Part shown: piece by piece, positions 25,998 through 40,552 of the stretch
Position numbering within the stretch: position 1 is the first letter of the stretch
How the letters are laid out: the number at the start of each line of letters is the position of its first letter
IMG/VR virus record: IMGVR_UViG_3300035180_001452
Location: 58,381-122,380 of that record
DNA from: a virus
Direction: 5' to 3' (one strand)
Length of the DNA: 64,000 nucleotides
Notes under the pieces: generated by a model
What the model was told of the DNA's origin: nothing
The model's database searches: none
The model's input: the letters and a program-made list of their open reading frames with translations, nothing else
Made by a program: the position numbers and the translations under genes

Positions 25998-26345
25998 ATG
26001 TCCAAGGTTAAGGAGTGGTTGGAGAAGCTTGCGGGGCTTTTGGCCCCAAAGGCGAGGATCGTGGAGAGCACGGCTACCGGTGACGATCAGACCGGCATCG
26101 TCACTGTCGCCCTTATCCAGGGCGATGCGCGCATCGAGATGGCGGTCAGCTATGACCGCCAGAATTTCCGGGTTGGCTTCTCCGTCAAGAAGGCGGAGGG
26201 CTACCCGGTCTCTTCTGGAAGCGTTACCTTCGAGAACAACTGGTACGAGGTTCATCTCGAGAATATTCTCGAGATGAAGTTCAAAAGTGCATCGATGATC
26301 CCGTGGGGGATCATCGGGGCTGAGATCGAGAAGGCTATCAGGTAG
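25998..26345 (+). CDS. Array family A protein, copy 1
   Basis: This 115-aa protein starts with an amphipathic helix (WLEKLAGLLAP), has a beta-rich middle, and closes with SMIPWGIIGAEIEKAIR, the family A signature: (S/A)-x-I/V-P/Q-W followed by a Lys/Glu helix. The DNA is almost continuous hairpins, such as GGCGGTCA/TGACCGCC and GATGATCCC/GGGATCATC (26294-26315). The stop codon lies in a 14-bp perfect hairpin at 26324-26356. A Shine-Dalgarno AGAAAGG follows leader L1. Four paralogs follow downstream. Function unknown. Confidence 0.75.
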   Translation: MSKVKEWLEKLAGLLAPKARIVESTATGDDQTGIVTVALIQGDARIEMAVSYDRQNFRVGFSVKKAEGYPVSSGSVTFENNWYEVHLENILEMKFKSASMIPWGIIGAEIEKAIR

Positions 26346-26359
26346 CCTTCTCGATCACC

Positions 26360-26389
26360 AAGGAGGAGGGGCTAACGCCCCTCCTTCTT
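26360..26389 (+). terminator. 3' hairpin T1
   Basis: AAGGAGGAGGGGC pairs with GCCCCTCCTTCTT around TAAC (one G-U pair). There is no U tract after it. First of fourteen copies. Confidence 0.7.
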
Positions 26390-26392
26390 GGG

Positions 26393-26427
26393 CTGAGTGC
26401 TTAGGGGACATGAGCCCCTGCACTCGG
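26393..26427 (+). promoter_or_regulatory. Leader hairpin L2
   Basis: Inner stem AGGGG/CCCCT here replaces the AGAGG/CCTCT seen in L4 and others, a compensated change. It precedes family A copy 2. Confidence 0.7.
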
Positions 26428-26440
26428 AAAGGAAAAGGAA

Positions 26441-26806
26441 ATGGAGTTGAAGATTGAGAAGTTTCTGCGCCTGGTGACGGGGCTTCTCCTGCCCCCCGAC
26501 ACGGTCTGTGTCGAGGAGACCGTGCTCGGTACTGACGAGTCGGGCATCGTGGGGTACATGTTCCAGATTGGCGAGGTCAACCTGGACGTTGCACTCACGA
26601 ACAACCGGGACGAGTGGACGTTCACCCTTGATACTATCAAGGGAGGTCGGAAGATCCTGATGGTCACCGTCTTGTACCAGCACGCGTGGTACAGCATGTC
26701 TATCCGGGCCAAGGACGTGGAGACGACCCGGAAGTTCCGGGATGCCTCGAGCATTCCCTGGGACGAGGTCGGGAAGGAGATCGGCAAGGCCCTCTCTGAC
26801 ATCTAG
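26441..26806 (+). CDS. Array family A protein, copy 2
   Basis: This 121-aa protein begins MELKIEKFLRLVTGLLLP, an amphipathic or hydrophobic helix shared with copy 3, and ends SSIPWDEVGKEIGKALSDI. The ribosome site GAAAGGAAAAGG precedes the ATG. The stop codon falls in a hairpin at 26787-26815 with AGGCCCTCTC/GAGAGGGCCT arms, the left arm being coding. Composition is GC-rich, unlike flanking phage genes. No catalytic motif; perhaps a small membrane-active or inhibitory protein, judging only from size and helix. Confidence 0.75.
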   Translation: MELKIEKFLRLVTGLLLPPDTVCVEETVLGTDESGIVGYMFQIGEVNLDVALTNNRDEWTFTLDTIKGGRKILMVTVLYQHAWYSMSIRAKDVETTRKFRDASSIPWDEVGKEIGKALSDI

Positions 26807-26821
26807 AGAGGGCCTGGGCCT

Positions 26822-26851
26822 AAGGAGGAGGGGCTAACGCCCCTCCTTCTT
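26822..26851 (+). terminator. 3' hairpin T2
   Basis: Same core as T1, extended by GCC/GGC outer pairs. Placed after family A copy 2. Confidence 0.7.
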
Positions 26852-26861
26852 GGGCTGAGCC

Positions 26862-26880
26862 AGAAGAATGTACCTCTGGC
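26862..26880 (+). promoter_or_regulatory. Leader hairpin E1
   Basis: A second leader type, a CCAGA/TCTGG stem around an A-rich loop, is followed by GGGAGGAGGTG. It is used by the three family E genes. Confidence 0.55.
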
Positions 26881-26899
26881 TTGGGAGGAGGTGAATAAA

Positions 26900-27037
26900 A
26901 TGGTGGGCCTCGTTGTGGTGGTAGTAGTTGTGGCGGGCCTGGTTAAGCTCCTCGAGTCGGTTCGTGAGGAGCAAAACCGTGCCCTCACCTTCTCCTTTAT
27001 GGAGATCATGAAGGAGGAGAAGGAGGAGGAGAAGTAA
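26900..27037 (+). CDS. Array family E small membrane protein, copy 1
   Basis: The ATG is preceded by a strong GGAGGAGG site and encodes 45 aa. The product has one hydrophobic segment (GLVVVVVVVAGLVKLL) and a charged Glu/Lys-rich tail, so it is a likely single-pass membrane peptide. The end of the gene forms GGAGGAGGAGAA/TTCTCCTCCTCC with the stop in the loop (27022-27049). A paralog lies at 29362. Toxin-like or holin-like peptides share this size and shape, but there is no evidence of function. Confidence 0.6.
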   Translation: MVGLVVVVVVVAGLVKLLESVREEQNRALTFSFMEIMKEEKEEEK

Positions 27038-27054
27038 TTCTCCTCCTCCAGCCT

Positions 27055-27084
27055 AAGGAGGAGGGGCTAACGCCCCTCCTTCTT
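27055..27084 (+). terminator. 3' hairpin T3
   Basis: Core identical to T1, 18 nt after the family E copy 1 stop. Confidence 0.7.
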
Positions 27085-27087
27085 GGG

Positions 27088-27122
27088 CTGAGTGTTTAGA
27101 GGACATGAGCCTCTGCACTCAG
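27088..27122 (+). promoter_or_regulatory. Leader hairpin L3
   Basis: CTGAGTG outer stem with AGAGG/CCTCT inner stem. It precedes family B copy 1. Confidence 0.7.
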
Positions 27123-27134
27123 AAAGGTAGGAAG

Positions 27135-27602
27135 ATGAAGCCTAGCAAGAAGATCCTTGCTGGGTTCCAGGTCCTCTTTGGATCTGGGATCCAGCAGGGG
27201 GTGACCCCAGAAGTTTGGGTCACTACCAGCAAGCGGACTTTTAAGATGGTCCGCTGTGACATCGGAACCCCCGTTGTGGGGGTCATCACCCGCAGCGGCT
27301 GGCAGGTTGCCGCTATCCAGTCCGAGGAGAAGTATGTCTGGCTCGCTCCTGGCGAGAGCGAGCCAAGGATCGGGTCTCTCGTCAAGCTCCTTCAGGAGTT
27401 CTTGAAGGATAAGGGTGATGGCGTGTTCGACATCATCCTTGCCTTCAAGAAGGAGGTCGAGGAGACCAAGGCTAGCAAGAAGGATGATGAGACCTTTATC
27501 GACCTGCTTTATAAGCAGGCCGAGATGGTCTCCTCAACCATCTCGAGCACGTACTCCAGCGTGGTGGAGTACGTTACCAACATCCCCAAGATTTTCTCGT
27601 AG
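27135..27602 (+). CDS. Array family B protein, copy 1
   Basis: This 155-aa protein has an N-terminal ILAGFQVLFGSGIQQGVTPEV, a central EEKYVWLAPGESEP, and a C-terminal EMVSSTISSTYSSVVEYV segment ending NIPKIFS. Copy 2 at 30566 is about the same length; copy 3 at 32451 lacks the last third. Coding hairpins include AGCAAG/CTTGCT at codons 4-9, AGCGGAC/GTCCGCT, and TGGCTCGCT/AGCGAGCCA. The stop is in a perfect 12-bp hairpin (27576-27613). Function unknown; probably soluble with a helical end. Confidence 0.75.
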   Translation: MKPSKKILAGFQVLFGSGIQQGVTPEVWVTTSKRTFKMVRCDIGTPVVGVITRSGWQVAAIQSEEKYVWLAPGESEPRIGSLVKLLQEFLKDKGDGVFDIILAFKKEVEETKASKKDDETFIDLLYKQAEMVSSTISSTYSSVVEYVTNIPKIFS

Positions 27603-27618
27603 GGGATGTTGGTAGCCT

Positions 27619-27648
27619 GAGGAGGAGGGGCTAACGCCCCTCCTTCTT
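27619..27648 (+). terminator. 3' hairpin T4
   Basis: Left arm starts GAGGAGGAGG; outer AGCC/GGCT pairs extend it. The 3' flank reads TTCTTAGGCT rather than TTCTTGGGCT. Confidence 0.7.
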
Positions 27649-27651
27649 AGG

Positions 27652-27686
27652 CTGAGTGTTTAGAGGACACGAGCCTCTGCACTCAG
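27652..27686 (+). promoter_or_regulatory. Leader hairpin L4
   Basis: Loop ACACGAG instead of ACATGAG, so the loop ATG is not conserved. It feeds noncoding module N1 rather than a normal gene. Confidence 0.7.
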
Positions 27687-27688
27687 AA

Positions 27689-27825
27689 AGGCAGTGCAAT
27701 GACTTGACTGCCTTGGATCGCTGATCGCTAGGCTAGTTAATGCTTTAGGGGCAGTATTAACTAGCTAGAGTGCAGCCTTGGTATTAAAGTGTGGCTGCAA
27801 TAGGGCTAACGCCCTTCCTTTTTAT
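27689..27825 (+). ncRNA. Noncoding module N1 with two-codon minigene
   Basis: An AGAAAGG site is followed by ATG-ACT-TGA (27699-27707) in the loop of GGCAGT/ACTGCC. Then come a 13-bp stem GCTAGTTAATGCT/AGTATTAACTAGC with a TTAGGGGC loop, a TGCAGCC/GGCTGCA stem, and an intrinsic terminator (GGGC-TAAC-GCCC then TTCCTTTTT). No longer frame is present. It is the first of five copies (27689, 29855, 31141, 32264, 32969). Either a regulatory RNA or a leader-peptide type element. Confidence 0.65.
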
Positions 27826-27826
27826 G

Positions 27827-27861
27827 CTGAGTGCTTAGAGGACATGAGCCTCTGCACTCAG
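27827..27861 (+). promoter_or_regulatory. Leader hairpin L5
   Basis: CTGAGTGC/GCACTCAG outer stem, AGAGG/CCTCT inner stem. It leads family C copy 1. Confidence 0.7.
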
Positions 27862-27875
27862 AAAGGAAGAAGAAG

Positions 27876-28286
27876 ATGAAGTTGTTGATCCGGCTGTTCA
27901 CGATGTATCTTGACTTCCTCCTTAAGAATTCAATGGAGGTAGTTAAGATGGAGGTAGTGGGCGGTAGCTTTGACATCGATTCCGTTCAGGATGGTGTCAG
28001 GCTCTCTGTTTCTGCAAAGCTTACCCAGGAAGGTATGCTTTTGCAGTATGTGTTGGGTTTTAAGGAAAGATACCTAGTAACGACACGTTTGGCAGGTAAT
28101 AGTGGATATGGACATAAGTCAATGGTGGCAAGGAAGCCACATGAGAAGAGAAAGATCCGTCTGGAGAGTCGGCTCCTCCAGACGGAGGATGAGGTCGTTC
28201 GGTTCCTCCAGCCAGGGGGAACCGATGAGGTTTCCGTTGAGGATGCTATGAAGATTCATAGCATCCTTATCTGGCTGGATGAGTAG
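27876..28286 (+). CDS. Array family C protein, copy 1
   Basis: This 136-aa protein opens MKLLIRLFTMYLDFLL, a hydrophobic amphipathic helix, and ends TDEVSVEDAMKIHSILIW. It is nearly collinear with copy 2 at 30042. A GAAAGGAAGAAGAAG site precedes the start. Hairpins in the CDS include CCGTCTGGAG/CTCCAGACGG. The final arm CTGGCTGG/CCAGCCAG (28271-28300) encloses the stop. Part of the middle (27950-28130) is more AT-rich and less folded than the rest. No known family. Confidence 0.72.
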   Translation: MKLLIRLFTMYLDFLLKNSMEVVKMEVVGGSFDIDSVQDGVRLSVSAKLTQEGMLLQYVLGFKERYLVTTRLAGNSGYGHKSMVARKPHEKRKIRLESRLLQTEDEVVRFLQPGGTDEVSVEDAMKIHSILIWLDE

Positions 28287-28303
28287 TTTCGACCAGCCAG
28301 CTT

Positions 28304-28333
28304 GAGAGGGAGGGGCTAACGCCCCTCCTTCTT
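28304..28333 (+). terminator. 3' hairpin T5
   Basis: Left arm variant GAGAGGGAGGGGC with the standard right arm; still paired through G-U. Confidence 0.65.
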
Positions 28334-28336
28334 GGG

Positions 28337-28370
28337 CTGAGCACTCTGGGGACATGAGCCCCTGTGCTTG
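28337..28370 (+). promoter_or_regulatory. Leader hairpin L6
   Basis: Outer arms are GAGCAC and GTGCTT instead of GAGTGC and GCACTC. Both arms changed together, which supports base pairing. Confidence 0.75.
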
Positions 28371-28383
28371 AAAGGAGACAGCG

Positions 28384-28803
28384 ATGCTATATGCTATCGC
28401 TGAGGCGTACCGAAGCATCTTCGGTGCGCCCGTCCACGAGACAATCGTGGACGGTATCCTCCACCAGGCTTTTCTGGTGGGGGATGGTGTGGTGGAGCTT
28501 TCGTTCCACCATACCATGGACAAGATGATGATGTCTATGGTCTTGTCCATTGTTCCGGCCTCGGTCGAGGTCGGATATGATGTTATCCTCAAGGACAACA
28601 TCGTGACTTTCCGTCTTGCCCTTTCCAAGGGCGAGCTTGACTCTGAGGAAGTTGCGCTTAGCGCGCAGCTTCCTTGTGGGGTGCACCCCATCAAGGTGTT
28701 CCTTCCTGGGAAGGAGGGACCTGTTCCCTCCTTCCTCAACCTCAGTGAGGAGCAGCACATGCTCCTCAAGGAGTGGACTAAGAAGTTGATGGGGAGCATG
28801 TAG
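28384..28803 (+). CDS. Array family D protein
   Basis: This 139-aa singleton has a GAAAGGAGACAGCG site before the ATG. The sequence begins with MLYAIAEAYRSIF, a short helix, then alternating beta segments, and ends LLKEWTKKLMGSM, a basic helix. Its DNA is among the clearest for the hairpin pattern: CCGTCCACGA/TCGTGGACGG (28430-28454), CCACCAG/CTGGTGG, ATGGACAAG/CTTGTCCAT, all perfect. There is no similarity I recognise to families A-C. Function unknown. Confidence 0.72.
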   Translation: MLYAIAEAYRSIFGAPVHETIVDGILHQAFLVGDGVVELSFHHTMDKMMMSMVLSIVPASVEVGYDVILKDNIVTFRLALSKGELDSEEVALSAQLPCGVHPIKVFLPGKEGPVPSFLNLSEEQHMLLKEWTKKLMGSM

Positions 28804-28810
28804 TGGTTTT

Positions 28811-28846
28811 GTATTACCGGGAAATGAGCTCACATCCCGGTAATAC
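28811..28846 (+). repeat. Intergenic hairpin element P1
   Basis: GTATTACCGGGA pairs with TCCCGGTAATAC over a loop containing ATGAGCTCACA. Relatives lie at 31104, 32906 and 33875. It sits between the family D stop and T6. Confidence 0.6.
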
Positions 28847-28868
28847 AGACGTAGCTAACTACTAGACT

Positions 28869-28898
28869 AAGGAGGAGGGGCTAACGCCCCTCCTTCTT
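28869..28898 (+). terminator. 3' hairpin T6
   Basis: The outer extension changes to AGAC/GGTCT from the usual GCC/GGC, a compensatory change that supports a real stem. Confidence 0.72.
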
Positions 28899-28901
28899 GG
28901 T

Positions 28902-28935
28902 CTGAGTGCTTAGGGGACATGAGCCCCTGCACTTG
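28902..28935 (+). promoter_or_regulatory. Leader hairpin L7
   Basis: AGGGG/CCCCT inner stem. The 3' arm ends GCACTTGG and the ribosome site is GAAGGAGAAGG. Confidence 0.68.
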
Positions 28936-28948
28936 GAAGGAGAAGGAA

Positions 28949-29269
28949 ATGGAGTTGAATATCGAGCAGATGATGTACAATCTGATTGCGGCCCTGCTTC
29001 CCGGAAACATTTCCGGGATCGATCGGACGCTCCAGATCAATGTCAAGACCATTGATTTGGCGCTCGGAGAGTTCGGTCTCGAGGGGATGCTTACTCTGGA
29101 AATCGTTGAGAATGACAACAAGCTCGTTAAGGTTGTTATTCGATACGAGGAGGGTGAGTACACTCTTGGCATCCGGACCAAGGAGATGCATACGATCCGG
29201 AAGTTCCGGGATATCTCGGTGATCCCCTGGAACACCATCACGGATGAGATCGAGGAGGCTATCAAGTAG
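28949..29269 (+). CDS. Array family A protein, copy 3
   Basis: This 106-aa protein begins MELNIEQMMYNLIAALLPG and ends SVIPWNTITDEIEEAIK. It is closest to copy 2 (shared IRTKEMHTIRKFRD versus IRAKDVETTRKFRD). The stop lies in a GAGGCTA/TAGCCTTCTC hairpin near 29250-29280. Family A has five members in this array, all around 106-127 aa and all with the W-containing C-terminal helix, which suggests one fold diversified by duplication. Confidence 0.75.
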   Translation: MELNIEQMMYNLIAALLPGNISGIDRTLQINVKTIDLALGEFGLEGMLTLEIVENDNKLVKVVIRYEEGEYTLGIRTKEMHTIRKFRDISVIPWNTITDEIEEAIK

Positions 29270-29283
29270 CCTTCTCGACCCCT

Positions 29284-29313
29284 AAGGAGGAGGGGCTAAC
29301 GCCCCTCCTTCTT
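29284..29313 (+). terminator. 3' hairpin T7
   Basis: Standard core, directly followed by the E-type leader stem. Confidence 0.7.
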
Positions 29314-29321
29314 GGGCTGAG

Positions 29322-29341
29322 CCAGAAGAATGTATCTCTGG
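29322..29341 (+). promoter_or_regulatory. Leader hairpin E2
   Basis: CCAGA/TCTGG stem, then GAGAGGAGGTG before the family E copy 2 start. Confidence 0.55.
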
Positions 29342-29361
29342 CTGGAGAGGAGGTGAATAAG

Positions 29362-29520
29362 ATGGATGTTCTCGCTGCTCTTCTGTCAGTCGTGGTTTTC
29401 GTAGCAGTAATGCTACGAGTACTCGGCTGTGCTCAGGAGGAGCATAAGCGGGTGATTACCAGCTCCTTCATCGAGGTTTGCAAGGCGATGAGGGAGGCGG
29501 AGGAGGCGGAGGAGAAATAA
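29362..29520 (+). CDS. Array family E small membrane protein, copy 2
   Basis: This 52-aa product has a hydrophobic segment LAALLSVVVFVAVMLRVLG and a Glu/Ala/Lys tail. It is related to copy 1 (QEEHKRVITSSFIEVCK versus REEQNRALTFSFMEIMK). It has a strong GAGGAGG site and is probably a single-pass membrane peptide. It is too short for length-based gene finders but is supported by its paralog, its conserved leader and T hairpins on both sides. Confidence 0.65.
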   Translation: MDVLAALLSVVVFVAVMLRVLGCAQEEHKRVITSSFIEVCKAMREAEEAEEK

Positions 29521-29533
29521 TCTCCTCTAGCCT

Positions 29534-29563
29534 GAGGAGGAGGGGCTAACGCCCCTCCTTCTT
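29534..29563 (+). terminator. 3' hairpin T8
   Basis: GAGGAGGAGG left arm, standard right arm, AGCC/GGCT extension. Confidence 0.7.
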
Positions 29564-29571
29564 GGGCTGAG

Positions 29572-29591
29572 CCAGAAGAATGTACCTCTGG
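29572..29591 (+). promoter_or_regulatory. Leader hairpin E3
   Basis: Third E-type leader, CCAGA/TCTGG, with ATGTACC in the loop as in E1. Confidence 0.55.
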
Positions 29592-29611
29592 CTGGAGAGG
29601 AGGTGAATAAG

Positions 29612-29767
29612 ATGACCGTCAAGATTTTCGATGGCTTTAATGCCGTGGTCGATGATGATGGCACCATCATCGGGTTCTATACGGACCCGGGTGTTCTCAT
29701 CGACCTTTGCCTTGACGAGGCTAATAATATTATTGGCTTCGTCAAGGCCAAGGAGGAGGAGAAGTAA
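29612..29767 (+). CDS. Small acidic protein with E-type leader
   Basis: This 51-aa protein (VKIFDGFNAVVDDDGTIIG, then a helix ending KAKEEEK) shares leader, ribosome site and the Glu/Lys end with family E but lacks a membrane helix; the body is soluble and acidic. The end folds as GAGGAGGAGAA/TTCTCCTCCTC with the stop in the loop. It could be an antagonist or partner of the membrane peptides, by analogy only. Confidence 0.6.
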   Translation: MTVKIFDGFNAVVDDDGTIIGFYTDPGVLIDLCLDEANNIIGFVKAKEEEK

Positions 29768-29784
29768 TTCTCCTCCTCCAGCCT

Positions 29785-29814
29785 GAGGAGGAGGGGCTAA
29801 CGCCCCTCCTTCTT
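29785..29814 (+). terminator. 3' hairpin T9
   Basis: Standard core with GAGGAGGAGG left arm. Confidence 0.7.
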
Positions 29815-29817
29815 GGG

Positions 29818-29852
29818 CTGAGTGTTTAGAGGACACGAGCCTCTGCACTCAG
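29818..29852 (+). promoter_or_regulatory. Leader hairpin L8
   Basis: ACACGAG loop as in L4; both lead N modules. Confidence 0.7.
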
Positions 29853-29854
29853 AA

Positions 29855-29989
29855 AGGCAGTGCAATGACTTGACTGCCTTGGATTGCTAGTTGCCAAGCT
29901 AGTTAATGCTAAGGGGCTAGTATTAACTAGCTTGAGTGCAGCCCTAGTACTAACGTGTGGCTGCAATAGGGCTAACGCCCTTCCTTTTT
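29855..29989 (+). ncRNA. Noncoding module N2 with two-codon minigene
   Basis: Minigene ATG-ACT-TGA at 29865-29873 in the GGCAGT/ACTGCC loop. Relative to N1 the loop of the large stem changes from CTTTAGGGGCAG to CTAAGGGGCTAG, with outer pairs kept. Ends in the GGGC-TAAC-GCCC intrinsic terminator. Confidence 0.65.
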
Positions 29990-29992
29990 ATA

Positions 29993-30027
29993 CTGAGTGC
30001 TTAGAGGACATGAGCCTCTGCACTCAG
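29993..30027 (+). promoter_or_regulatory. Leader hairpin L9
   Basis: AGAGG/CCTCT inner stem; leads family C copy 2. Confidence 0.7.
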
Positions 30028-30041
30028 AAAGGAAGAAGAAG

Positions 30042-30467
30042 ATGAAGCTGTTGGTCCGGCTGTTCGTGATGTACTTGGATTTTCTCCGCAGCGGCTTCGC
30101 GGAGGTTACCAAGCTTGAAGCTGGTGAGGAGGGCTTCAAGCTCGAGGCGGTGGATGCTTACGGAGGGATTGTTCTTACGACCTCTTTTGAGGTCGTTCCG
30201 ACAGGGGTTGTCCTTCAGTATGTTCTTCTTTACGAATCGCGCAACTATCTCATAACAACGCGATTCGTTGGGAATGACGGATGGTCGTTCAAGTCAATGA
30301 CGGCAACAAAGTCAAATCCGTCTGAGACTAGAAAGATCCGTCTAGAGACTCGCACCCTCCAGACGGAGGATGAGGTCGTTCGGTTCCTTCAACCAGAAGG
30401 GACCGATGAGGTTTCTGTCGAGGATGCTATGAAGATTCATAGCATTCTCGCGTGGCTGGTCGAGTAG
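30042..30467 (+). CDS. Array family C protein, copy 2
   Basis: This 141-aa protein is paralogous to the product at 27876 along its full length (MKLLVRLFVMYLDFL; KIRLETRTLQTEDEVVRFLQ; SVEDAMKIHSIL). In the shared FLQP segment the Leu-Gln codons change from CTC-CAG to CTT-CAA together with GGG to GAA in the opposite arm, so the stem is retained. Stop within the CTGGCTGG/CCAGCCAG hairpin. Function unknown. Confidence 0.72.
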   Translation: MKLLVRLFVMYLDFLRSGFAEVTKLEAGEEGFKLEAVDAYGGIVLTTSFEVVPTGVVLQYVLLYESRNYLITTRFVGNDGWSFKSMTATKSNPSETRKIRLETRTLQTEDEVVRFLQPEGTDEVSVEDAMKIHSILAWLVE

Positions 30468-30484
30468 TTTCGACCAGCCAGCCT

Positions 30485-30514
30485 AAGGAGGAGGGGCTAA
30501 CGCCCCTCCTTCTT
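30485..30514 (+). terminator. 3' hairpin T10
   Basis: AAGGAGGAGGGGC left arm, standard right arm. Confidence 0.7.
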
Positions 30515-30517
30515 GGG

Positions 30518-30552
30518 CTGAGTGTTTAGAGGACATGAGCCTCTGCACTCAG
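30518..30552 (+). promoter_or_regulatory. Leader hairpin L10
   Basis: AGAGG/CCTCT inner stem; ribosome site AGAAAGGGGAGG before family B copy 2. Confidence 0.7.
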
Positions 30553-30565
30553 AAAGGGGAGGCAT

Positions 30566-31018
30566 ATGACGCCTCGCGAGAAGTACCTCGCGGGGTTCCA
30601 GGTCCTCTTTGGACCTGGAATTCCACGGGGTGTCACCCCCGAGGTCCGCATTGCCGTTGGTAAGCGGACCAGCACGATGGTGCGATGCACCATCGGGACC
30701 CCCATTGTGGGGGTCATCGTCCGCGAGGGCTGGATGGTCGCAAAGATCCAGCCTGAGGAGAAGTATGTCTGGCTCGCTCCTAATGAGAGCGAGCCAAGCG
30801 TTGGTTCTCTCACTCAGCTCCTTCAGGGGTTCCTGAAGGACAAGGGGTGCGTGTTCGATCTCCTTCTTGAGTTCAAGAAGGAGATCGAGGAGTCCAAGGA
30901 GGATGTCACCTTCCTTGACTTGATGTACAAGCAGCTCGAGATGGTTGGTGATACCATCTCGAGCACGTACTCCACTATGCTGGAGTACGTTACCAACATC
31001 CCCAAGATTTTCTCGTAG
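30566..31018 (+). CDS. Array family B protein, copy 2
   Basis: This 150-aa paralog of the product at 27135 shares LAGFQVLFG, EEKYVWLAP, and the C-terminal YVTNIPKIFS. At codons 4-9 the arms are CGCGAG/CTCGCG where copy 1 has AGCAAG/CTTGCT: the Leu-Ala codons differ synonymously to match the other arm. Other stems: GATGGTGC/GCACCATC, CCAGGTCC/GGACCTGG. The stop lies in the ACCAACATCCCC hairpin as in copy 1. Function unknown. Confidence 0.75.
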   Translation: MTPREKYLAGFQVLFGPGIPRGVTPEVRIAVGKRTSTMVRCTIGTPIVGVIVREGWMVAKIQPEEKYVWLAPNESEPSVGSLTQLLQGFLKDKGCVFDLLLEFKKEIEESKEDVTFLDLMYKQLEMVGDTISSTYSTMLEYVTNIPKIFS

Positions 31019-31034
31019 GGGATGTTGGTAGCCT

Positions 31035-31064
31035 GAGGAGGAGGGGCTAACGCCCCTCCTTCTT
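31035..31064 (+). terminator. 3' hairpin T11
   Basis: Standard core, followed by another hairpin instead of a leader. Confidence 0.7.
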
Positions 31065-31069
31065 GGGCT

Positions 31070-31091
31070 GAGGAGATATTAGTATCTCCTC
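31070..31091 (+). repeat. Perfect hairpin after T11
   Basis: GAGGAGATA/TATCTCCTC around TTAG, 9 bp, in the spot where a leader hairpin normally starts. Confidence 0.5.
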
Positions 31092-31103
31092 TTATTACTT
31101 TGG

Positions 31104-31137
31104 TATTACCGGGAATGTGAGACACTCTCCGGTAATA
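31104..31137 (+). repeat. Intergenic hairpin element P2
   Basis: TATTACCGG/CCGGTAATA with inner GTG/CAC. It replaces leader L in front of module N3, so P and L seem interchangeable as 5' structures. Confidence 0.6.
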
Positions 31138-31140
31138 AGA

Positions 31141-31279
31141 AAGGAGTGGTAGAATGACTTGACTACCTAGTGACATCCGTAGCTAGGCTAGTTAATGCTA
31201 GGGGGCTAGTATTAACTAGCCAGAATGCAGCCCTAGTATTAACGTGTGGCTGCAATAGGGCTAACGCCCTTCCTTTTTA
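31141..31279 (+). ncRNA. Noncoding module N3 with two-codon minigene
   Basis: AAGGAG site, then ATG-ACT-TGA at 31154-31162 in the loop of GGTAG/CTACC. The arms differ from N1 (GGCAGT/ACTGCC) yet remain paired, while the minigene is unchanged. Same downstream stems and terminator as the other copies. Confidence 0.65.
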
Positions 31280-31281
31280 TA

Positions 31282-31316
31282 CTGAGTGTTTAGAGGACAT
31301 GAGCCTCTGCACTCAG
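31282..31316 (+). promoter_or_regulatory. Leader hairpin L11
   Basis: CTGAGTG outer, AGAGG/CCTCT inner; leads family A copy 4. Confidence 0.7.
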
Positions 31317-31330
31317 AAAGGCAGGAGAAG

Positions 31331-31699
31331 ATGAAGTTTGACGTTGTGGAAATGCTGGCATGGTTTGCCAGCATGTTGGGCGTATCCGCTGATACGTCCA
31401 ACATCGAGACCGGGATCTCTTCTCGGTCTAAGTATGCCTCCATCGATAAGACTATCGATGGGATTGCCTTCTCAATGAAGGCATCAGTGGCTCTGGACGG
31501 AGAGTGGTGTATTCTCGGCATGGTGGCCGAGAACAAGGAGGGTAGCTGTGCTACCCTCTCGGTCTGTGTCGACCGTGACGTTACGGTCGGGATGGAGGAT
31601 GGCAATGGTGTTTACACCGTTGCCATCTACGAGTCGGCTGCTGATGTTCCGTGGGAGGATATCAGCGACAAGGCTAACAAGGTCATCTCTAGCCTGTAG
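31331..31699 (+). CDS. Array family A protein, copy 4
   Basis: This 122-aa protein begins MKFDVVEMLAWFASML, a hydrophobic helix shared with copy 5, and ends with the family signature ADVPWEDISDKANKV. The gene is nearly all hairpins in a row: ATGCTGGCA/TGCCAGCAT (31352-31374), CCATCGAT/ATCGATGG, GCCTTC/GAAGGC, TTCTCGGC/GCCGAGAA, GAGGGTAGC/GCTACCCTC, CGACCGT/ACGGTCG, and GATGGCAA with inner GGTGT/ACACC. It is the best example of the pattern. Function unknown. Confidence 0.75.
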   Translation: MKFDVVEMLAWFASMLGVSADTSNIETGISSRSKYASIDKTIDGIAFSMKASVALDGEWCILGMVAENKEGSCATLSVCVDRDVTVGMEDGNGVYTVAIYESAADVPWEDISDKANKVISSL

Positions 31700-31714
31700 A
31701 GGTGGCTTTGGCCT

Positions 31715-31744
31715 GAGGAGGAGGGGCTAACGCCCCTCCTTCTT
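31715..31744 (+). terminator. 3' hairpin T12
   Basis: Standard core; 3' flank TTCTTAGGCT as in T4. Confidence 0.7.
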
Positions 31745-31747
31745 AGG

Positions 31748-31782
31748 CTGAGTGTTTAGAGGACATGAGCCTCTGCACTCAG
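31748..31782 (+). promoter_or_regulatory. Leader hairpin L12
   Basis: Identical in type to L11; leads family A copy 5. Confidence 0.7.
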
Positions 31783-31796
31783 AAAGGCAGGAGAAG

Positions 31797-32180
31797 ATGA
31801 TGTTTGATGTTGTGGAGATGCTGGCATGGTTTGCTGGCATTCTCCTGCCTGACGCGTACTACCGCGCGTCAGGCGTGGCAACCGGTAAGTCTGATGATTC
31901 TTGCTACGCTGAGACTGGTTATCTCAGCAGCAAGAATAGCGGACTTGCGATCGGTGTGAAGTGCACCTCCTCGTTCGACAATAGCTGGTGGATTCTCGGC
32001 TTGGTAGCCGAGAATCTGGATGGGGAGTTCTTCACGCTGTCCCTGTCATTTGACAGGGGGACTGTCACGTACTCGGTGGAGGATAAGGGGCTTTATTCCT
32101 CCTATGAGTATGACAACATCACTGATGTTCAGTGGGATGTTGTCATTAATGAGACCATTAAGGCCCTCTCTAGGATGTAG
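31797..32180 (+). CDS. Array family A protein, copy 5
   Basis: This 127-aa protein is a near tandem duplicate of copy 4 at its N-terminus (FDVVEMLAWFAGILLP) and diverged afterwards. Its end has VQW where the others have IPW or VPW. Stems include CCTGACGCG/CGCGTCAGG (10 bp with flanks) and TTCTCGGC/GCCGAGAA. The stop is in an AGGCCCTCTC/GAGAGGGCCT hairpin identical to that of copy 2, although the C-terminal residues differ. Confidence 0.75.
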   Translation: MMFDVVEMLAWFAGILLPDAYYRASGVATGKSDDSCYAETGYLSSKNSGLAIGVKCTSSFDNSWWILGLVAENLDGEFFTLSLSFDRGTVTYSVEDKGLYSSYEYDNITDVQWDVVINETIKALSRM

Positions 32181-32195
32181 AGAGGGCCTGAGCCT

Positions 32196-32225
32196 GAGGA
32201 GGAGGGGCTAACGCCCCTCCTTCTT
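32196..32225 (+). terminator. 3' hairpin T13
   Basis: Standard core after family A copy 5. Confidence 0.7.
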
Positions 32226-32228
32226 GGG

Positions 32229-32262
32229 CTGAGTGTTTAGAGGACATGAGCCTCTGCACTCA
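32229..32262 (+). promoter_or_regulatory. Leader hairpin L13
   Basis: The 3' end runs directly into CAAGGAGG, a stronger ribosome site than the usual AGAAAGG. Leads N4. Confidence 0.68.
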
Positions 32263-32263
32263 A

Positions 32264-32400
32264 GGAGGCAGTGCAATGACTTGACTGCCTTGGATTGCTA
32301 GTTGTTAAGCTAGTTAATACTTTAGGGGCAGTATTAACTAGCTAGAATGCGGTTCTAGTGTTAAAGTGTGGCTGCAATAGGGCTAACGCCCTTCCTTTTT
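32264..32400 (+). ncRNA. Noncoding module N4 with two-codon minigene
   Basis: Minigene ATG-ACT-TGA at 32276-32284. Large stem GCTAGTTAATACT/AGTATTAACTAGC is now fully Watson-Crick, where N1 has one G-U pair. The TGCAGCC arm is weaker here (TGCGGTT). Ends with the intrinsic terminator. Confidence 0.62.
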
Positions 32401-32403
32401 ATA

Positions 32404-32437
32404 CTGAGCATTCTGGGGACATGAGCCCCTGTGCTTG
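32404..32437 (+). promoter_or_regulatory. Leader hairpin L14
   Basis: GAGCAT/GTGCTT outer arms with G-U pairs, GGGG/CCCC inner stem, like L6. Confidence 0.66.
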
Positions 32438-32450
32438 AAAGGGGAGGCAT

Positions 32451-32843
32451 ATGACGCCTCGCGAGAAGTATCTTGCGGGATTCTGGGCGTTGTTTGAGCC
32501 CGTAATTCCCGCAGCCCTCCGGACGGTAGTCCGGAGGACCGTCCGGCTTAGTAAAAGCCGTCAAACGTTTGAGACTGCTCTCGTAGTAGTCTCAATCGAA
32601 GTCGGTGGGCGAACCCTTAGGATGGTTCGACAGCCGATCAAGGACTCCCAAACGGGAGTCCTTGCGAGCAGTGGCTGGAAGATCGCTTGGGTTTTCCAGC
32701 CAGATCCAGAGAATGGAACGTATGTTCCATTTCCCGAGGGCCGGTGCGTTTGGCTGGCCCCGGGATCCGACCAGCCCAAGATCGGGTTGGTCGGGGACCT
32801 TCTCCGGGAGGCGTACGGACTCCCGGAGAGGATCAACCGGTAG
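32451..32843 (+). CDS. Array family B protein, copy 3 (short)
   Basis: This 130-aa protein shares the start TPREKYLAGF with copy 2 and the VWLAPGS-QP-IG segment, but stops at LREAYGLPERINR. It lacks the ~45-residue C-terminal region with YVTNIPKIFS. The middle has diverged strongly. Stems include AAGGACTCCC/GGGAGTCCTT (32640-32663) and CCGGACGG/CCGTCCGG. It is followed not by a T hairpin but by a different 15-bp hairpin. Confidence 0.72.
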   Translation: MTPREKYLAGFWALFEPVIPAALRTVVRRTVRLSKSRQTFETALVVVSIEVGGRTLRMVRQPIKDSQTGVLASSGWKIAWVFQPDPENGTYVPFPEGRCVWLAPGSDQPKIGLVGDLLREAYGLPERINR

Positions 32844-32847
32844 CTTT

Positions 32848-32886
32848 GTATAAGGAGGAGAAGGCTAGTATTTTCTCCTCCTTATA
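32848..32886 (+). terminator. 15-bp hairpin after family B copy 3
   Basis: GTATAAGGAGGAGAA/TTCTCCTCCTTATAC, perfect. It again pairs a GGAGG sequence with CCTCC but is unrelated in length to T. Confidence 0.6.
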
Positions 32887-32905
32887 CTACGACTGGTGAT
32901 TTTTT

Positions 32906-32967
32906 TACCGGGAGGTGTGTTCCGTCAGCTTATGCGTAAGTATAGGCTCGGATCACATCTCCCGGTA
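32906..32967 (+). repeat. Intergenic hairpin element P3
   Basis: TACCGGGAG/CTCCCGGTA arms with a longer, partly self-complementary insert. Precedes N5. Confidence 0.55.
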
Positions 32968-32968
32968 G

Positions 32969-33109
32969 AAAGGCAAAAGTAAAAATGACCTGACTACCTA
33001 TTGGTAGCTGGCGCTAGATTAGTTAATACTTTAGGGGTAGTATTAACTATCTAGTGTATAGCTCTAATATTAAGGTGTGGCTGCAATAGGGCTAACGCCC
33101 TTCCTTTTT
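32969..33109 (+). ncRNA. Noncoding module N5 with two-codon minigene
   Basis: Minigene is ATG-ACC-TGA (32985-32993), a synonymous change from ACT. Minigene hairpin arms are weak here. The downstream stems are the most diverged of the five, but the GGCTGCAATAGGGCTAACG end and terminator are intact. Confidence 0.6.
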
Positions 33110-33112
33110 ATA

Positions 33113-33147
33113 TTGAGTGCTTAGAGGACATGAGCCTCTGCACTCAG
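33113..33147 (+). promoter_or_regulatory. Leader hairpin L15
   Basis: TTGAGTGC outer start, otherwise as L5; the last copy of the leader. Confidence 0.7.
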
Positions 33148-33160
33148 AAAGGAGATGTAG

Positions 33161-33565
33161 ATGATTGCGGGTGTCTTGGTCGGGCTCATCGAGCAGCTGC
33201 TGCTCGGTGACTTCAGCATCTTAGGGCGGTATGTGCTTGGTAACCCTAAGATGCACGAGTGCTGTCACAAGACATTGGTTGTTGATGGTGCCGCTGTGTT
33301 GGTCACCGTTGCCGTGTCCGGTTTTGGTCACGGTATCGTGACCGTCTCCTCTAGCTCCTCTAGCGGTACCTATGGTGCTCGGTCTGTGGAGGTAGTGGGC
33401 ATCATGGGACTCCCGGATCATACCTGGGCCGTCAACGGGCATACCGTTGATGGTGGGAGGCTGATCTCAGTGGAGGAGGTCGTTGGAAAGGTTGGTGTTG
33501 GTGGAAGCTTCGCGTGGAAGGGCGTATGCAAGGAGGTGGTGGACCTCTACCTTAAGTTGAGGTAG
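33161..33565 (+). CDS. Array family G protein (singleton)
   Basis: This 134-aa protein has the hydrophobic start MIAGVLVGLIEQLLLG, then a beta-rich Gly/Ser/Val body (GIVTVSSSSSSGTYGARS) with CC and several histidines (MHECCHK, FGHG). The closing helix VVDLYLKLR folds at RNA level as GGACCTCTACCT/AGGTAGAGGTCC around the stop. No known family; shares only the layout (leader, hydrophobic start, beta body) with families A and C. Confidence 0.68.
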   Translation: MIAGVLVGLIEQLLLGDFSILGRYVLGNPKMHECCHKTLVVDGAAVLVTVAVSGFGHGIVTVSSSSSSGTYGARSVEVVGIMGLPDHTWAVNGHTVDGGRLISVEEVVGKVGVGGSFAWKGVCKEVVDLYLKLR

Positions 33566-33576
33566 AGGTCCAGCCT

Positions 33577-33606
33577 GAGGAGGAGGGGCTAATGCCCCTC
33601 CTTCTT
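33577..33606 (+). terminator. 3' hairpin T14
   Basis: Last T copy, with loop TAAT instead of TAAC. Confidence 0.7.
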
Positions 33607-33660
33607 GGGCTGTCTGAGGGCTAAAAGTTTGTTACTACTCTCTGACAAATGTCTACATGT

Positions 33661-33686
33661 TTAGGGGCTAACGCCCCTCTTTTTAG
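33661..33686 (+). terminator. Intrinsic terminator
   Basis: AGGGGC-TAAC-GCCCCT followed by CTTTTT. It is the first clear U-tract terminator after the array that is not part of an N module. Confidence 0.7.
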
Positions 33687-33723
33687 TGCTGGGGTATAGT
33701 ACTATACCCTAGGAGGATGTTAC

Positions 33724-33849
33724 ATGGTACGTCCAGATGGCATCCGATTCGGGGCCTTCGGCCCCTGTTGCTATGCCGGGCATACCATGACGGCAATCTT
33801 CTTTACTACAAAGACTACCGGTAGGGTGCAATCCTGCCTGTACTTTTAG
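33724..33849 (+). CDS. Possible 41-aa peptide
   Basis: A GGAGG at 33712-33716 stands 7 nt before an ATG that opens 41 codons with CCY and several aromatics (IRFGAFGPCCYAGHTM). Its DNA includes GGGGCC/GGCCCC and GGTA/TACC stems. It lacks a paralog, so it is uncertain. Confidence 0.35.
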   Translation: MVRPDGIRFGAFGPCCYAGHTMTAIFFTTKTTGRVQSCLYF

Positions 33850-33874
33850 TAATAGCCTATACTCAAGTAAACAG

Positions 33875-33902
33875 TACCGGGAAGTGTGCACACTCTCCGG
33901 TA
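33875..33902 (+). repeat. Intergenic hairpin element P4
   Basis: TACCGG/CCGGTA with inner GTGT/ACAC, related to P1-P3. Confidence 0.5.
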
Positions 33903-34204
33903 TATCAGTCATAGCTACGCTATGGTATCAGTAGCAGCTACACTAGAGCTTTAGCCGGTAGGTTTCAGTCGCAGCTAGGCTATGATCTTTTGGTGAAAGT
34001 GGCCACCATAGGGCAAAAAGTGCCACATTTTTGGGCCGAAAATGGACAAAAATGGGCCAAAACATGGATGGGTACTTTTGGGGCTATGGGAGCCACTTAT
34101 CCAATAGCCTATAGCTACTTTACCTGGGTAAACAATACTCACCCTGCGGTAAGGGTGTTTACATATAGTGCACAGTTGGTAGACTACCAGAGAGGAGGAT
34201 GGAT

Positions 34205-34636
34205 ATGGTAGTCAGAGTCCTCTTGGGGAGGACGACAAACCCCAGGAGGGGGCTGGATACTACGGTCAAGTCAGGAAACGGACTTGGCCGTACGTTCGCT
34301 CCCTCCTGGGAGCTGGTCCTGGGATTCAAGAACTACCAGGACCAGCAGGCGGGCAGGGTAGCTCGCTTCCCAGGGTATAATCCTATATCCTGGGAAGAAT
34401 ACTCCCTTTTCTACCGGGAGATGTTGAACAGTCTCCCGGTAGACGGTAAGGGGATCCCGTACGCTGTGCGGGATCTTTACAACTTCGGAAAGGAGCAGCC
34501 CGGTAACGTGCTGCTTCTACGTTGCTACTGCTCGGTAGCAACCCCGTGCTGTCACAACCAGCTAATCATTGATTGGCTGGTTGGGAGGTGGCCGAAGGCC
34601 TTCGGCCTCCTCCAGGATAGCCTCCCCGGTATCTAG
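34205..34636 (+). CDS. DUF4326-like protein
   Basis: Starting at the second ATG (34205), six nt after AGGAGG, gives 143 aa. The C-terminal CYCSVATPCCHNQLIIDWL resembles the CWC...CHGDVL signature of DUF4326 proteins, and the N-terminal LLGRTTNPRRGLD fits the same fold's loop. DUF4326 is common in phages; function unknown. The CDS is hairpin-rich: TCTACCGGGAGA/TCTCCCGGTAGA (34410-34443), CTGGTCCTGG/CCAGGACCAG, CTTCCCAGG/CCTGGGAAG. Confidence 0.6.
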   Translation: MVVRVLLGRTTNPRRGLDTTVKSGNGLGRTFAPSWELVLGFKNYQDQQAGRVARFPGYNPISWEEYSLFYREMLNSLPVDGKGIPYAVRDLYNFGKEQPGNVLLLRCYCSVATPCCHNQLIIDWLVGRWPKAFGLLQDSLPGI

Positions 34637-34647
34637 TATATCGGGGA

Positions 34648-34694
34648 GAAAGCCAAGCAGGACGTGGTGCGTTCGATACTACGTCCTGCTTGGC
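34648..34694 (+). terminator. Long hairpin after DUF4326-like gene
   Basis: GCCAAGCAGGACGT pairs with ACGTCCTGCTTGGC, a 14-bp perfect stem with a ~15-nt loop. No T tract. Confidence 0.55.
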
Positions 34695-34751
34695 ACTACT
34701 CAAGTATACCATCGGAATACCTTTTGCTCTGATCCTGATGGTGAAACTAGC

Positions 34752-34772
34752 CTTGCACATGAGAGCGAGGCA
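34752..34772 (+). promoter_or_regulatory. Leader hairpin for family F copy 1
   Basis: GCCTTGC/GCGAGGC stem around ACATGA, then AGAGAGGAG. Repeated before copy 2 at about 35478-35499. Confidence 0.55.
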
Positions 34773-34795
34773 GAGAGGAGAGAGAAGTGAATAGT

Positions 34796-35467
34796 ATGGA
34801 TCGGGAAGAGGTGTGGCGTACCTGCCCACCGTGGCTAAGAAACGCTGCCCTGGCTATAGCCAGGGGATATGACCACGGATGGTCGCGATCGACAGCCGTT
34901 CCGTCAGCTCCTTACTTTTGGGAGTATGACGACCCATTTCCTTCTCTCAGTGAGATTGAAGAAGGGACACCAGAGGGACCCCTTGGCAAGGGGATCACAC
35001 AGCCTGATATCTCGTTCGAAGATGGGCGATACTTTGCCCGACATAGAACGGGAACTGGTAGGGTCTTTATAGAAGTTGCGGTAGACCCTACGAATGATTG
35101 TGACCTTTCTTATACGGTCATTGTCTCCAGACCCAGTGGAGAAATCGCCTCTGGTACCAAGGTTGGTAATGAGGTATACGTGACTGCAGATCGGGCAGTT
35201 TGGGGGACTCGCCATGAGGACGCTTGGGAGAAGGCGTGGAAAGCTCTTGGGATTCCTGCTCCCAAGTTCCCCAGCAAGGTTCTTAGGACCATTGAGAAGA
35301 ACCTTGTTGTAGATGGTAAGGGACTGAAAGTCGATCCCTTGCGCTGTAGGGTTACGGTACTCCCTACAGCAGTGCTCTCAGTAGAGGACCTTCTAAGCCT
35401 TAGGAGGGCTGAGAAGGTCGAGATAGTTGATATTGTCGGTCAGAGCTATGACCTCACTATCAGCTGA
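34796..35467 (+). CDS. Family F protein, copy 1
   Basis: This 223-aa protein is the head of a family with at least six members in the window. Conserved marks, in order: EEVWRTCP, LRNAALAIARGYDHGW, PYFWEYDD, EIEEGTPEGPLGKGI, TGTGRVFIEV, GTRHEDAWEKAWKALG and a C-terminal GLKVDPLRCRV domain. No catalytic motif is recognised. The ATG at 34796 aligns with copy 2 and follows GAGAGGAGAG; GTG at 34787 is less likely. Hairpins in the CDS: CCCTGGC/GCCAGGG (34850-34863), GTAGGGTC/GACCCTAC. Function unknown. Confidence 0.72.
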   Translation: MDREEVWRTCPPWLRNAALAIARGYDHGWSRSTAVPSAPYFWEYDDPFPSLSEIEEGTPEGPLGKGITQPDISFEDGRYFARHRTGTGRVFIEVAVDPTNDCDLSYTVIVSRPSGEIASGTKVGNEVYVTADRAVWGTRHEDAWEKAWKALGIPAPKFPSKVLRTIEKNLVVDGKGLKVDPLRCRVTVLPTAVLSVEDLLSLRRAEKVEIVDIVGQSYDLTIS

Positions 35468-35516
35468 AGTCGTAACAGCCTTGCACATGAGAGCGAGGCA
35501 GAGAGGAGAAAACAGC

Positions 35517-36188: not shown

Positions 36189-36197
36189 AACCGCCAC

Positions 36198-36231
36198 AGA
36201 GGAGAGGGAGATCACACCCTCCCTCTCTTCT
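36198..36231 (+). terminator. Hairpin after family F copy 2
   Basis: GAGAGGGAG with CTCCCTCTC (GGGAG core) around ATCACACC, 10 nt after the stop. Confidence 0.55.
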
Positions 36232-36290
36232 GAATACAGGATCTAGGTGTGAACAACACCCCCCGCGCCTAGCGGGGAAAGGAGAGAACA

Positions 36291-37004: not shown

Positions 37005-37019
37005 CCTCCAGTACAGCTA

Positions 37020-37051
37020 GAGGGAGGTGCTCATGGATGAGCATCTCCCTC
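37020..37051 (+). promoter_or_regulatory. 15-bp palindrome over an alternative start
   Basis: GAGGGAGGTGCTCAT/ATGAGCATCTCCCTC with a 2-nt loop. It hides an in-frame ATG (37033) and its GGGAGG site, so translation probably starts at the ATG at 37087, which has its own AAGGAG. Confidence 0.6.
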
Positions 37052-37086
37052 CATTCTCACTACGTTGTACGTTGAAGGAGAATGGG

Positions 37087-38595: not shown

Positions 38596-38596
38596 G

Positions 38597-40480: not shown

Positions 40481-40516
40481 TCTCCACTAAGACGTAAACC
40501 CAGGAAATCGTGGCAA

Positions 40517-40552
40517 GAGGGGGAGGCTACACTCCCCCTCCTCCCCTTTTTT
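40517..40552 (+). terminator. Strong intrinsic terminator ending GC-rich region
   Basis: GAGGGGGAG/CTCCCCCTC stem, six-base loop, then CTCCCCTTTTTT. Downstream composition changes to AT-rich and dense coding hairpins cease. Confidence 0.8.

What the first reader, a model, noticed from the sequence alone, without database searches (positions are those of the whole stretch)
27135..30610. Synonymous codons covary to keep RNA stems in paralogous genes
In family B, codons 4-9 are AGC-AAG-...-CTT-GCT in copy 27135 and CGC-GAG-...-CTC-GCG in copy 30566. The 5' arm changes the amino acids (Ser-Lys to Arg-Glu), yet the Leu-Ala codons change only synonymously and precisely restore complementarity. In family C (27876, 30042) Leu-Gln CTC-CAG versus CTT-CAA tracks GGG versus GAA across the stem. 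This is direct evidence that structure, not only protein, is conserved.
Basis: seen in the sequence. Interest (0 to 1): 0.9.

Follow-up and report, generated by a model that had tools for sequence, protein, structure and literature searches.

The report
Phage operon carpeted with mRNA hairpins

Summary
The quoted codons are real, but the reading needs correcting. The family C stem folds in both copies (pair probability ~0.99), with one compensated double change. The flagship family B stem is not the favoured fold in copy 27135 (probability ~0); its Leu-Ala codons sit in a longer 20-bp hairpin. Across paralogues, compensation exceeds a codon-aware null only modestly (pooled z 3.7 one way, 1.3 the other). 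It is absent between this phage and its one distant relative (z 1.0, -1.2).

The larger fact: window ~26.0-40.5 kb (21 genes) is carpeted with hairpins by synonymous codon choice. The excess folding energy is -9.7 to -13.8 kcal/100 nt over codon-preserving shuffles in the two phages; six RNA phages give -5.5 to -9.2, T7 -0.7, T4 -1.8. The relative has the carpet at the same place, with mostly unrelated genes upstream. In stems, G.U outnumbers A.C mismatches 178:58, against 98:94 in RNA phages, so selection acts on the sense strand only. Start-codon regions stay less paired.

Best explanation: generic, position-independent selection for a highly folded mRNA, most likely protecting the transcript. 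The function is inferred, not shown.

The parts
25953..40480 (+). Hairpin carpet: block of rightward genes whose sense RNA is filled with local hairpins, inside and between genes
   Evidence: 150-nt folding z per 2-kb bin -3.4 to -6.5, against about -0.5 elsewhere in the window and about -0.4 in the rest of the record; codon-preserving z
27135..27602 (+). Family B copy 1 (155 aa)
27155..27199 (+). 20-bp hairpin that takes up the Leu-Ala codons of family B copy 1
   Evidence: Fold in context; stem list
30566..31018 (+). Family B copy 2 (150 aa)
   Evidence: Codon-shuffle folding z -9.5
32451..32843 (+). Family B copy 3, shares the N-terminal part (130 aa)
   Evidence: Codon-shuffle folding z -9.7; 40-45% aa identity to copies 1 and 2
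27876..28286 (+). Family C copy 1 (136 aa); stem 28199-28225
   Evidence: z -6.3; stem probability ~0.99
30042..30467 (+). Family C copy 2 (141 aa); stem 30380-30406
   Evidence: z -6.4; stem probability ~0.99
25998..26345 (+). First gene of the carpet; distant relative of 26441-26806 and 28949-29269 (about 30% aa)
   Evidence: z -5.0; alignment identity
31331..31699 (+). Paralogue pair member g12 (the other, g13, at 31797-32180, 42% aa)
   Evidence: z -9.7
34796..36188 (+). Family F copies inside the carpet (34796-35467 and 35517-36188)
   Evidence: z -8.0 and -6.2; paralogues outside the carpet at 43189 and 43761 give -3.1 and -1.0
36291..40480 (+). Conserved three-gene cassette (36291-37004, 37060-38595 with the motif HQGDCDGD, 38597-40480), no family match
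   Evidence: 39-49% aa identity to the syntenic genes of L022; no Pfam, PHROG or PDB match
27090..27126 (+). Leader hairpin GAGUGUUUAGAGGACAUGAGCCUCUGCACUC just before the Shine-Dalgarno sequence; example of the 18 pre-gene leaders aligned
   Evidence: 10 cells with compensated double changes, against 2.7 +/- 1.5 in shuffles (alignment A7)
27049..27090 (+). Intergenic 3' hairpin with UAAC loop; example of 14 long copies plus 5 short ones
   Evidence: 20 cells with compensated double changes, against 5.5 +/- 2.0 in shuffles (alignment A8); the same CUAACG apex is in L022
27688..27828 (+). Non-coding element X (about 140 nt), copy 1 of 5; others begin near 29854, 31139, 32262, 32964
   Evidence: 84% mean column identity, conserved 14-bp stem and terminator-like 3' end
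40508..40552 (+). G+C-rich stem-loop with U run just beyond the last carpet gene, probable end of the transcription unit
   Evidence: Read from the sequence; not in the list of the consensus terminator scan, so inference only

Best explanation
What it is (shown): in one phage transcription block (window ~26.0-40.5 kb) synonymous codon choice is arranged so that the sense RNA folds into short local hairpins almost everywhere, at a density above that of RNA-phage genomes. The density of structure is conserved between two distant phages at the same genomic place; the particular stems are not. The bias is specific to the sense strand and it spares the ribosome-binding site. How it works (inferred): selection is for a generically folded mRNA. 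Together with a hairpin leader before most genes of the first 8 kb and a hairpin after them, the most likely role is armour. The transcript of these genes, probably expressed early, exposes little single strand to endonucleases, exonucleases or guide-based attack, while ribosomes can still load at open start sites and unwind hairpins as they go. Confidence by step: density carpet real 0.95; selection on the sense single strand 0.9; acting on mRNA rather than on the displaced DNA strand 0.85; protection of the transcript as the main benefit about 0.4.
For: Dinucleotide-shuffle z of -3.4 to -6.5 in 2-kb bins, about -0.5 elsewhere. Codon-preserving excess of -11.2 and -9.7 kcal/100 nt here and -13.8 in the relative; six RNA phages -5.5 to -9.2, T7 -0.7, T4 -1.8, N4 early genes -2.8, neighbouring genes -2.2. 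The relative's carpet is bounded on the left by the same divergent gene (44% aa) and holds the same three-gene cassette; the rest of that 117-kb record gives z about 0 at nearly the same G+C, so G+C does not explain it. G.U:A.C in stems 178:58, against about 70:49 in codon shuffles and 98:94 in RNA phages (Fisher p 2e-7). Start region -10 to +20 paired 0.57-0.59, against about 0.75 on average. The same protein family outside the block is far less structured. Leader and 3' hairpins covary.
Against: No transcript, decay or structure-probing data exist. The RNase E-like motif RNWUU is not depleted in the carpet beyond codon shuffles (z -1.8 in the window, +1.0 in the relative), so there is no direct sign of that nuclease. 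Cas13d is reported to tolerate most target hairpins (PMC11364014), which weakens the RNA-guided-immunity version. It is not explained why only this block is structured. Only one independent relative was found.
Confidence: 0.45

Rival explanations
1. One reading: specific RNA stems are functional elements conserved by compensatory synonymous changes, as in a structured RNA family.
For: Modest excess of compensated pairs between close paralogues (B z 3.3, C z 2.5, F z 2.2); strong covariation in the intergenic leader and 3' hairpins.
Against: No conservation of coding stems between the two phages (z 1.0 and -1.2), none in the A-family or between B3 and B1/B2; the flagship B stem has probability ~0 in one copy.
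Confidence: 0.1
2. Co-transcriptional role: hairpins forming behind the polymerase stop backtracking, RNA-DNA hybrids or Rho action, speeding synthesis of a long operon.
For: Sense-strand-only signal; nascent RNA structure promotes forward movement and limits backtracking of RNA polymerases (PMC7427326); confined to one transcription block.
Against: Other long operons of the same phage lack it; a benefit in elongation would not require folding stronger than in RNA phages.
Confidence: 0.25
3. Evasion of RNA-guided or RNA-sensing host defence (CRISPR types III and VI, RNA-binding sensors) by hiding the first transcripts.
For: The block lies next to a divergent gene boundary and is probably early; its genes are small, fast-changing and of unknown family; genome-scale ordered RNA structure hides viral RNA from sensors in animal cells (PMC3950689).
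Against: Cas13d cleaves most structured targets (PMC11364014); no host or spacers known; untested here.
Confidence: 0.15
4. The block is or derives from a self-copying RNA (RNA-virus-like stage), whose strands must fold to stay apart.
For: Structure at or above RNA-phage level; the 37060 gene carries a DxDGD motif like one found in some RNA polymerases (a recalled resemblance only).
Against: RNA phages show equal G.U and A.C (98:94), meaning both strands are kept folded; the carpets show 178:58, sense only. PF00623 and PF05183 find nothing.
Confidence: 0.02
5. DNA-level cause: a palindrome-making mutational process (template switching between arms) or selection for DNA cruciforms.
For: Antisense folding is almost as extreme, as expected of any inverted repeats.
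Against: Excess of G.U over A.C is strand-specific; signal is carried by synonymous choice with proteins conserved; ribosome-binding sites are spared.
Confidence: 0.05

Closest known systems
[quoted passage not shown]
   Same: Pervasive local structure through coding sequence, set by codon choice, not by a fixed fold; linked to hiding RNA from host sensing (PMC3950689)
   Different: Here in one operon of a double-stranded-DNA phage, not a whole RNA genome
Levivirus genomes (MS2, PP7, GA, AP205, PRR1, phiCb5)
   Same: Coding RNA full of hairpins; measured here with the same statistics
   Different: In leviviruses the two strands show the same G.U/A.C balance; the carpet is sense-only and stronger
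Stabilised phage mRNAs with leader structures such as T4 gene 32 (PMC3014915)
   Same: Structured leader near the ribosome-binding site; very stable phage transcript
   Different: T4 has a few local elements; T4 coding regions show little excess structure
N4 virion-RNA-polymerase hairpin promoters
   Same: Short hairpins in the early region of a DNA phage
   Different: Those are a few single-strand DNA signals with defined short loops (from memory); N4 early genes show little excess structure, and the loops here vary

Membership tests
GORS-type coding RNA structure | Folding energy of coding sequence well below sequence-order-randomised controls over kilobases | tested here: met
GORS-type coding RNA structure | Structure spread along the sequence without conserved individual stems | tested here: met
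   Inter-phage stem conservation at the null level while both are structured
GORS-type coding RNA structure | Genome of a positive-strand RNA virus | tested here: not met
   DNA virus record with tail sheath-like and terminase-like genes and only 14 kb of 122 kb structured
Levivirus-like replicating RNA | Both RNA strands kept folded (equal G.U and A.C in stems) | tested here: not met
   178:58 against 98:94 in six leviviruses
Structured RNA family with covarying stems (coding hairpins) | Homologous stems kept by compensatory changes across homologues | tested here: not met
   Weak between paralogues, absent between phages
Structured RNA family with covarying stems (intergenic leader and 3' hairpin) | Homologous stems kept by compensatory changes across copies | tested here: met
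Described Rfam RNA families | Match above the curated score | tested here: not met
   only sub-threshold matches
N4-type hairpin promoters | 5-7 bp stem with 3-nt loop upstream of early genes | tested here: not met
   3-nt loops are 38 of 228 hairpins and lie throughout coding sequence
RNA polymerase (gene 37060-38595) | Detectable homology to RNA polymerase domains | tested here: inconclusive
   Motif HQGDCDGD only; no hit; model pLDDT 36

The most novel reading that the evidence does not exclude
A previously undescribed layer of gene expression in double-stranded-DNA phages: one operon evolves under transcript-wide, position-independent, sense-strand-only selection for folded mRNA, stronger than in RNA phages, so that the physical state of the messenger is itself a phage trait (protection, faster transcription or immune evasion).
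Probability: 0.65. Interest if true: 0.85.

Novelty: new variant of a known kind. Interest (0 to 1): 0.74.

Why it matters
Heavy coding structure is known as a property of RNA virus genomes, where it is hard to separate its effect on replication from its effects on stability and sensing. Here the same property sits on the mRNA of a single operon in a DNA phage, without RNA replication and with unstructured paralogues in the same genome as internal controls. That would make the question of what pervasive mRNA structure does in a bacterial cell directly testable. It also shows that paralogue covariation alone can mislead: structuredness can be conserved while every stem turns over.

Tried and rejected
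Conservation of individual coding stems across phages: rejected. RNase E site avoidance as the driver: no depletion of RNWUU in the carpet. Tetraloop signatures (GNRA, UNCG): not enriched apart from UAAC of the intergenic hairpins and a few GAAA in the relative. Self-copying RNA stage: disfavoured by the G.U to A.C balance and by no match to PF00623 or PF05183. Structure prediction of the two large conserved proteins: uninformative (pLDDT 36 and 31, two sequences), so no fold search was made. Rfam, Pfam, PHROGs and PDB: nothing. More relatives: eight scans of viral contigs gave one near-identical record and one distant relative only; the phage collection and genome contigs gave none. Contigs sharing a single copy of the 3' hairpin sequence carry no carpet. 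The near-identical record is ~100% identical and adds no covariation.
Full report
WHERE IT IS. The window is bases 58381-122380 of a 122,380-base virus record. Genes left of 25.8 kb run leftward and include tail sheath-like, capsid-like and terminase-like genes; genes right of it run rightward. The finding lies in a G+C-rich block (52-55% against about 39-44%) from ~26.0 to ~40.5 kb. The block begins just right of the divergent gene 25116-25742 and ends with gene 38597-40480.

CHECK OF THE OBSERVATION. The codons are as quoted. For family C the stem is strongly predicted in both copies (pair probability ~0.99) and holds one true compensated change (CTC to CTT against GGG to GAA) plus two wobble changes; CAG/CAA is in the loop. 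For family B the quoted 6-bp stem can form alone (-6.2 and -8.8 kcal/mol) and even a third copy at 32451 keeps it through G.U. In context, however, it has probability ~0 in copy 27135, because the Leu-Ala codons belong to a 20-bp hairpin at 27155-27199, and 0.33 in copy 30566. The example is therefore partly confirmed.

IS COVARIATION BEYOND CHANCE? I aligned paralogues by protein, took stems from one copy only, and compared pair retention in the other copy with versions in which every differing codon was redrawn among synonyms by local usage. Pooled over B, C, g12/g13, F and one A-family pair, 27 of 48 doubly changed pairs stay paired (null 16.7 +/- 2.7, 0 of 1000 as high) in one direction but 16 of 29 (null 14.9) in the other; overall z is 3.7 and 1.3. 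By family: B 3.3, C 2.5, F 2.2, g12/g13 0.8, A -0.7, B3 0.8. The null ignores transition bias, which inflates the single-change part. F copies outside the block give z 2.6, mostly from single changes, which shows that bias or shared ancestry. Between phages, over three long genes, z is 1.0 and -1.2. Stems are thus weakly kept between recent duplicates and not at all over longer times.

THE REAL SIGNAL. Folding of 150-nt windows against dinucleotide shuffles gives mean z of -3.4 to -6.5 per 2-kb bin in the block and about -0.5 outside, on this window and on the other 58 kb of the record. The null that matters keeps each protein and its codon usage and only permutes synonymous codons: carpet genes have z of -1.9 to -10.8, most beyond -5, while most other genes lie between +1 and -4. 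Two gene frames were off and were corrected. Coding hairpins number 90, 93 and 147 (26-34 kb, 34-40 kb, relative) against 48, 41 and 56 expected. In energy, the excess is -11.2, -9.7 and -13.8 kcal per 100 nt. Six levivirus genomes measured the same way give -5.5 to -9.2, N4 early genes -2.8, T4 -1.8, T7 -0.7. So this DNA-phage operon is folded at or above the level of RNA-phage genomes.

THE RELATIVE. One distant relative was found (L022, 117,564-base record; 46%, 49% and 39% identity for 37060, 38597 and 36291). Its carpet sits at the same place, between a homologue of 25116-25742 (44%) and the end of the three-gene cassette. Apart from a family F homologue (28% aa), I saw no relatives of the window's 26-36 kb genes there. 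The rest of that record has z about 0 at 48-55% G+C, so base composition is not the cause. Both phages use intergenic hairpins with a CUAACG apex. The carpet is a property of the locus, not of a protein family. In the window, family F has two copies in the carpet (z -8.0, -6.2) and others outside (43189, 68% identical to 34796, z -3.1; 43761, z -1.0).

WHICH STRAND, RNA OR DNA? A stem finder that treats all mismatches alike finds in coding stems G.U against A.C mismatches of 57:16, 38:18 and 83:24, together 178:58; codon shuffles give about 70:49; non-carpet DNA is near equal (56:47, 68:61). Leviviruses, whose two RNA strands must both fold, give 98:94 (Fisher p 2e-7). Selection therefore acts on the sense single strand, which fits mRNA and argues against a replicating RNA or a strand-symmetric DNA process. 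A displaced sense DNA strand in transcription bubbles is not formally excluded. Pairing dips from about 0.75 to 0.57-0.59 between -10 and +20 around start codons, as expected if ribosomes still load there.

INTERGENIC ELEMENTS. Most genes of the first 8 kb carry a leader hairpin directly upstream of the Shine-Dalgarno sequence and a 3' hairpin of up to 18 bp; both show true covariation among copies (leader: 10 compensated cells against 2.7; 3' hairpin: 20 against 5.5). Five copies of a ~140-nt non-coding element (X) end in a terminator-like hairpin.

MECHANISM. Shown: dense, sense-strand-specific, codon-encoded structure with stem turnover and open start sites. Inferred: that the transcript is protected. 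Leader hairpin, internal hairpins and 3' hairpin are together the features that lengthen bacterial mRNA life (established knowledge; T4 gene 32 as the phage example, PMC3014915). Against it, RNWUU sites are not depleted. A co-transcriptional benefit (PMC7427326) and evasion of RNA-targeting defence (by analogy with PMC3950689; weakened by PMC11364014) remain open.

KNOWN OR NEW. The closest concept is genome-scale ordered RNA structure of RNA viruses. Four literature searches on this point found no report of it in a DNA phage operon, but the library holds open-access papers only. I file it as a new variant of a known kind.

LIMITS. Structures are predicted, not probed. There is one independent relative. 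Early expression is inferred from gene layout. The record is metagenomic, though an almost identical stretch appears in a second record. Intergenic element counts refer to the alignments made here.

Noticed in passing
27699, 29865, 31154, 32276, 32985: Element X carries in all five copies ATG-AC(T/C)-TGA, a two-codon reading frame in the loop of its first hairpin, behind the leader and a Shine-Dalgarno-like AAAGG; the only change is the synonymous T/C. It could be a minigene (compare the two-codon bar minigenes of lambda, from memory) or a ribosome-loading decoy.
   Followed up: partly
37060-38595: Conserved protein with the motif IRHQGDCDGDRIGLH, reminiscent of the catalytic DxDGD of multisubunit RNA polymerases; no family match. 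The neighbours 36291 and 38597 are conserved with it.
   Followed up: partly
17433-19958, 52095-54644, 58000-61476: Apparent inteins (CLPGT/CLGKNT starts, VHN or THN ends) in the terminase-like, helicase-like and ribonucleotide-reductase-like genes; read by eye in translations.
   Followed up: no
49442-51647: Three tandem paralogues (MxNPLIVATPCKHPDNLPYLLQSF...) that look like glycosyltransferase-type proteins, by eye.
   Followed up: no
26818-33611: Intergenic hairpin apex CUAACG (UAAC loop) is shared by both phages; UAAC is also the loop of the T4/RB69 gene 43 translational operator bound by their DNA polymerase (PMC3014915). May be coincidence.
   Followed up: no
L022:2800-3321: Relative phage carries a recent tandem duplication of a whole leader-gene-hairpin unit (69-aa frame at 2800 repeated at 3112), showing how such units multiply.
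   Followed up: no
L017:1128-1865 and window 63486-64000: Tandem repeats coding a ~42-aa unit near the start of the record resemble the end of the window in the opposite orientation (75% identity).
   Followed up: no
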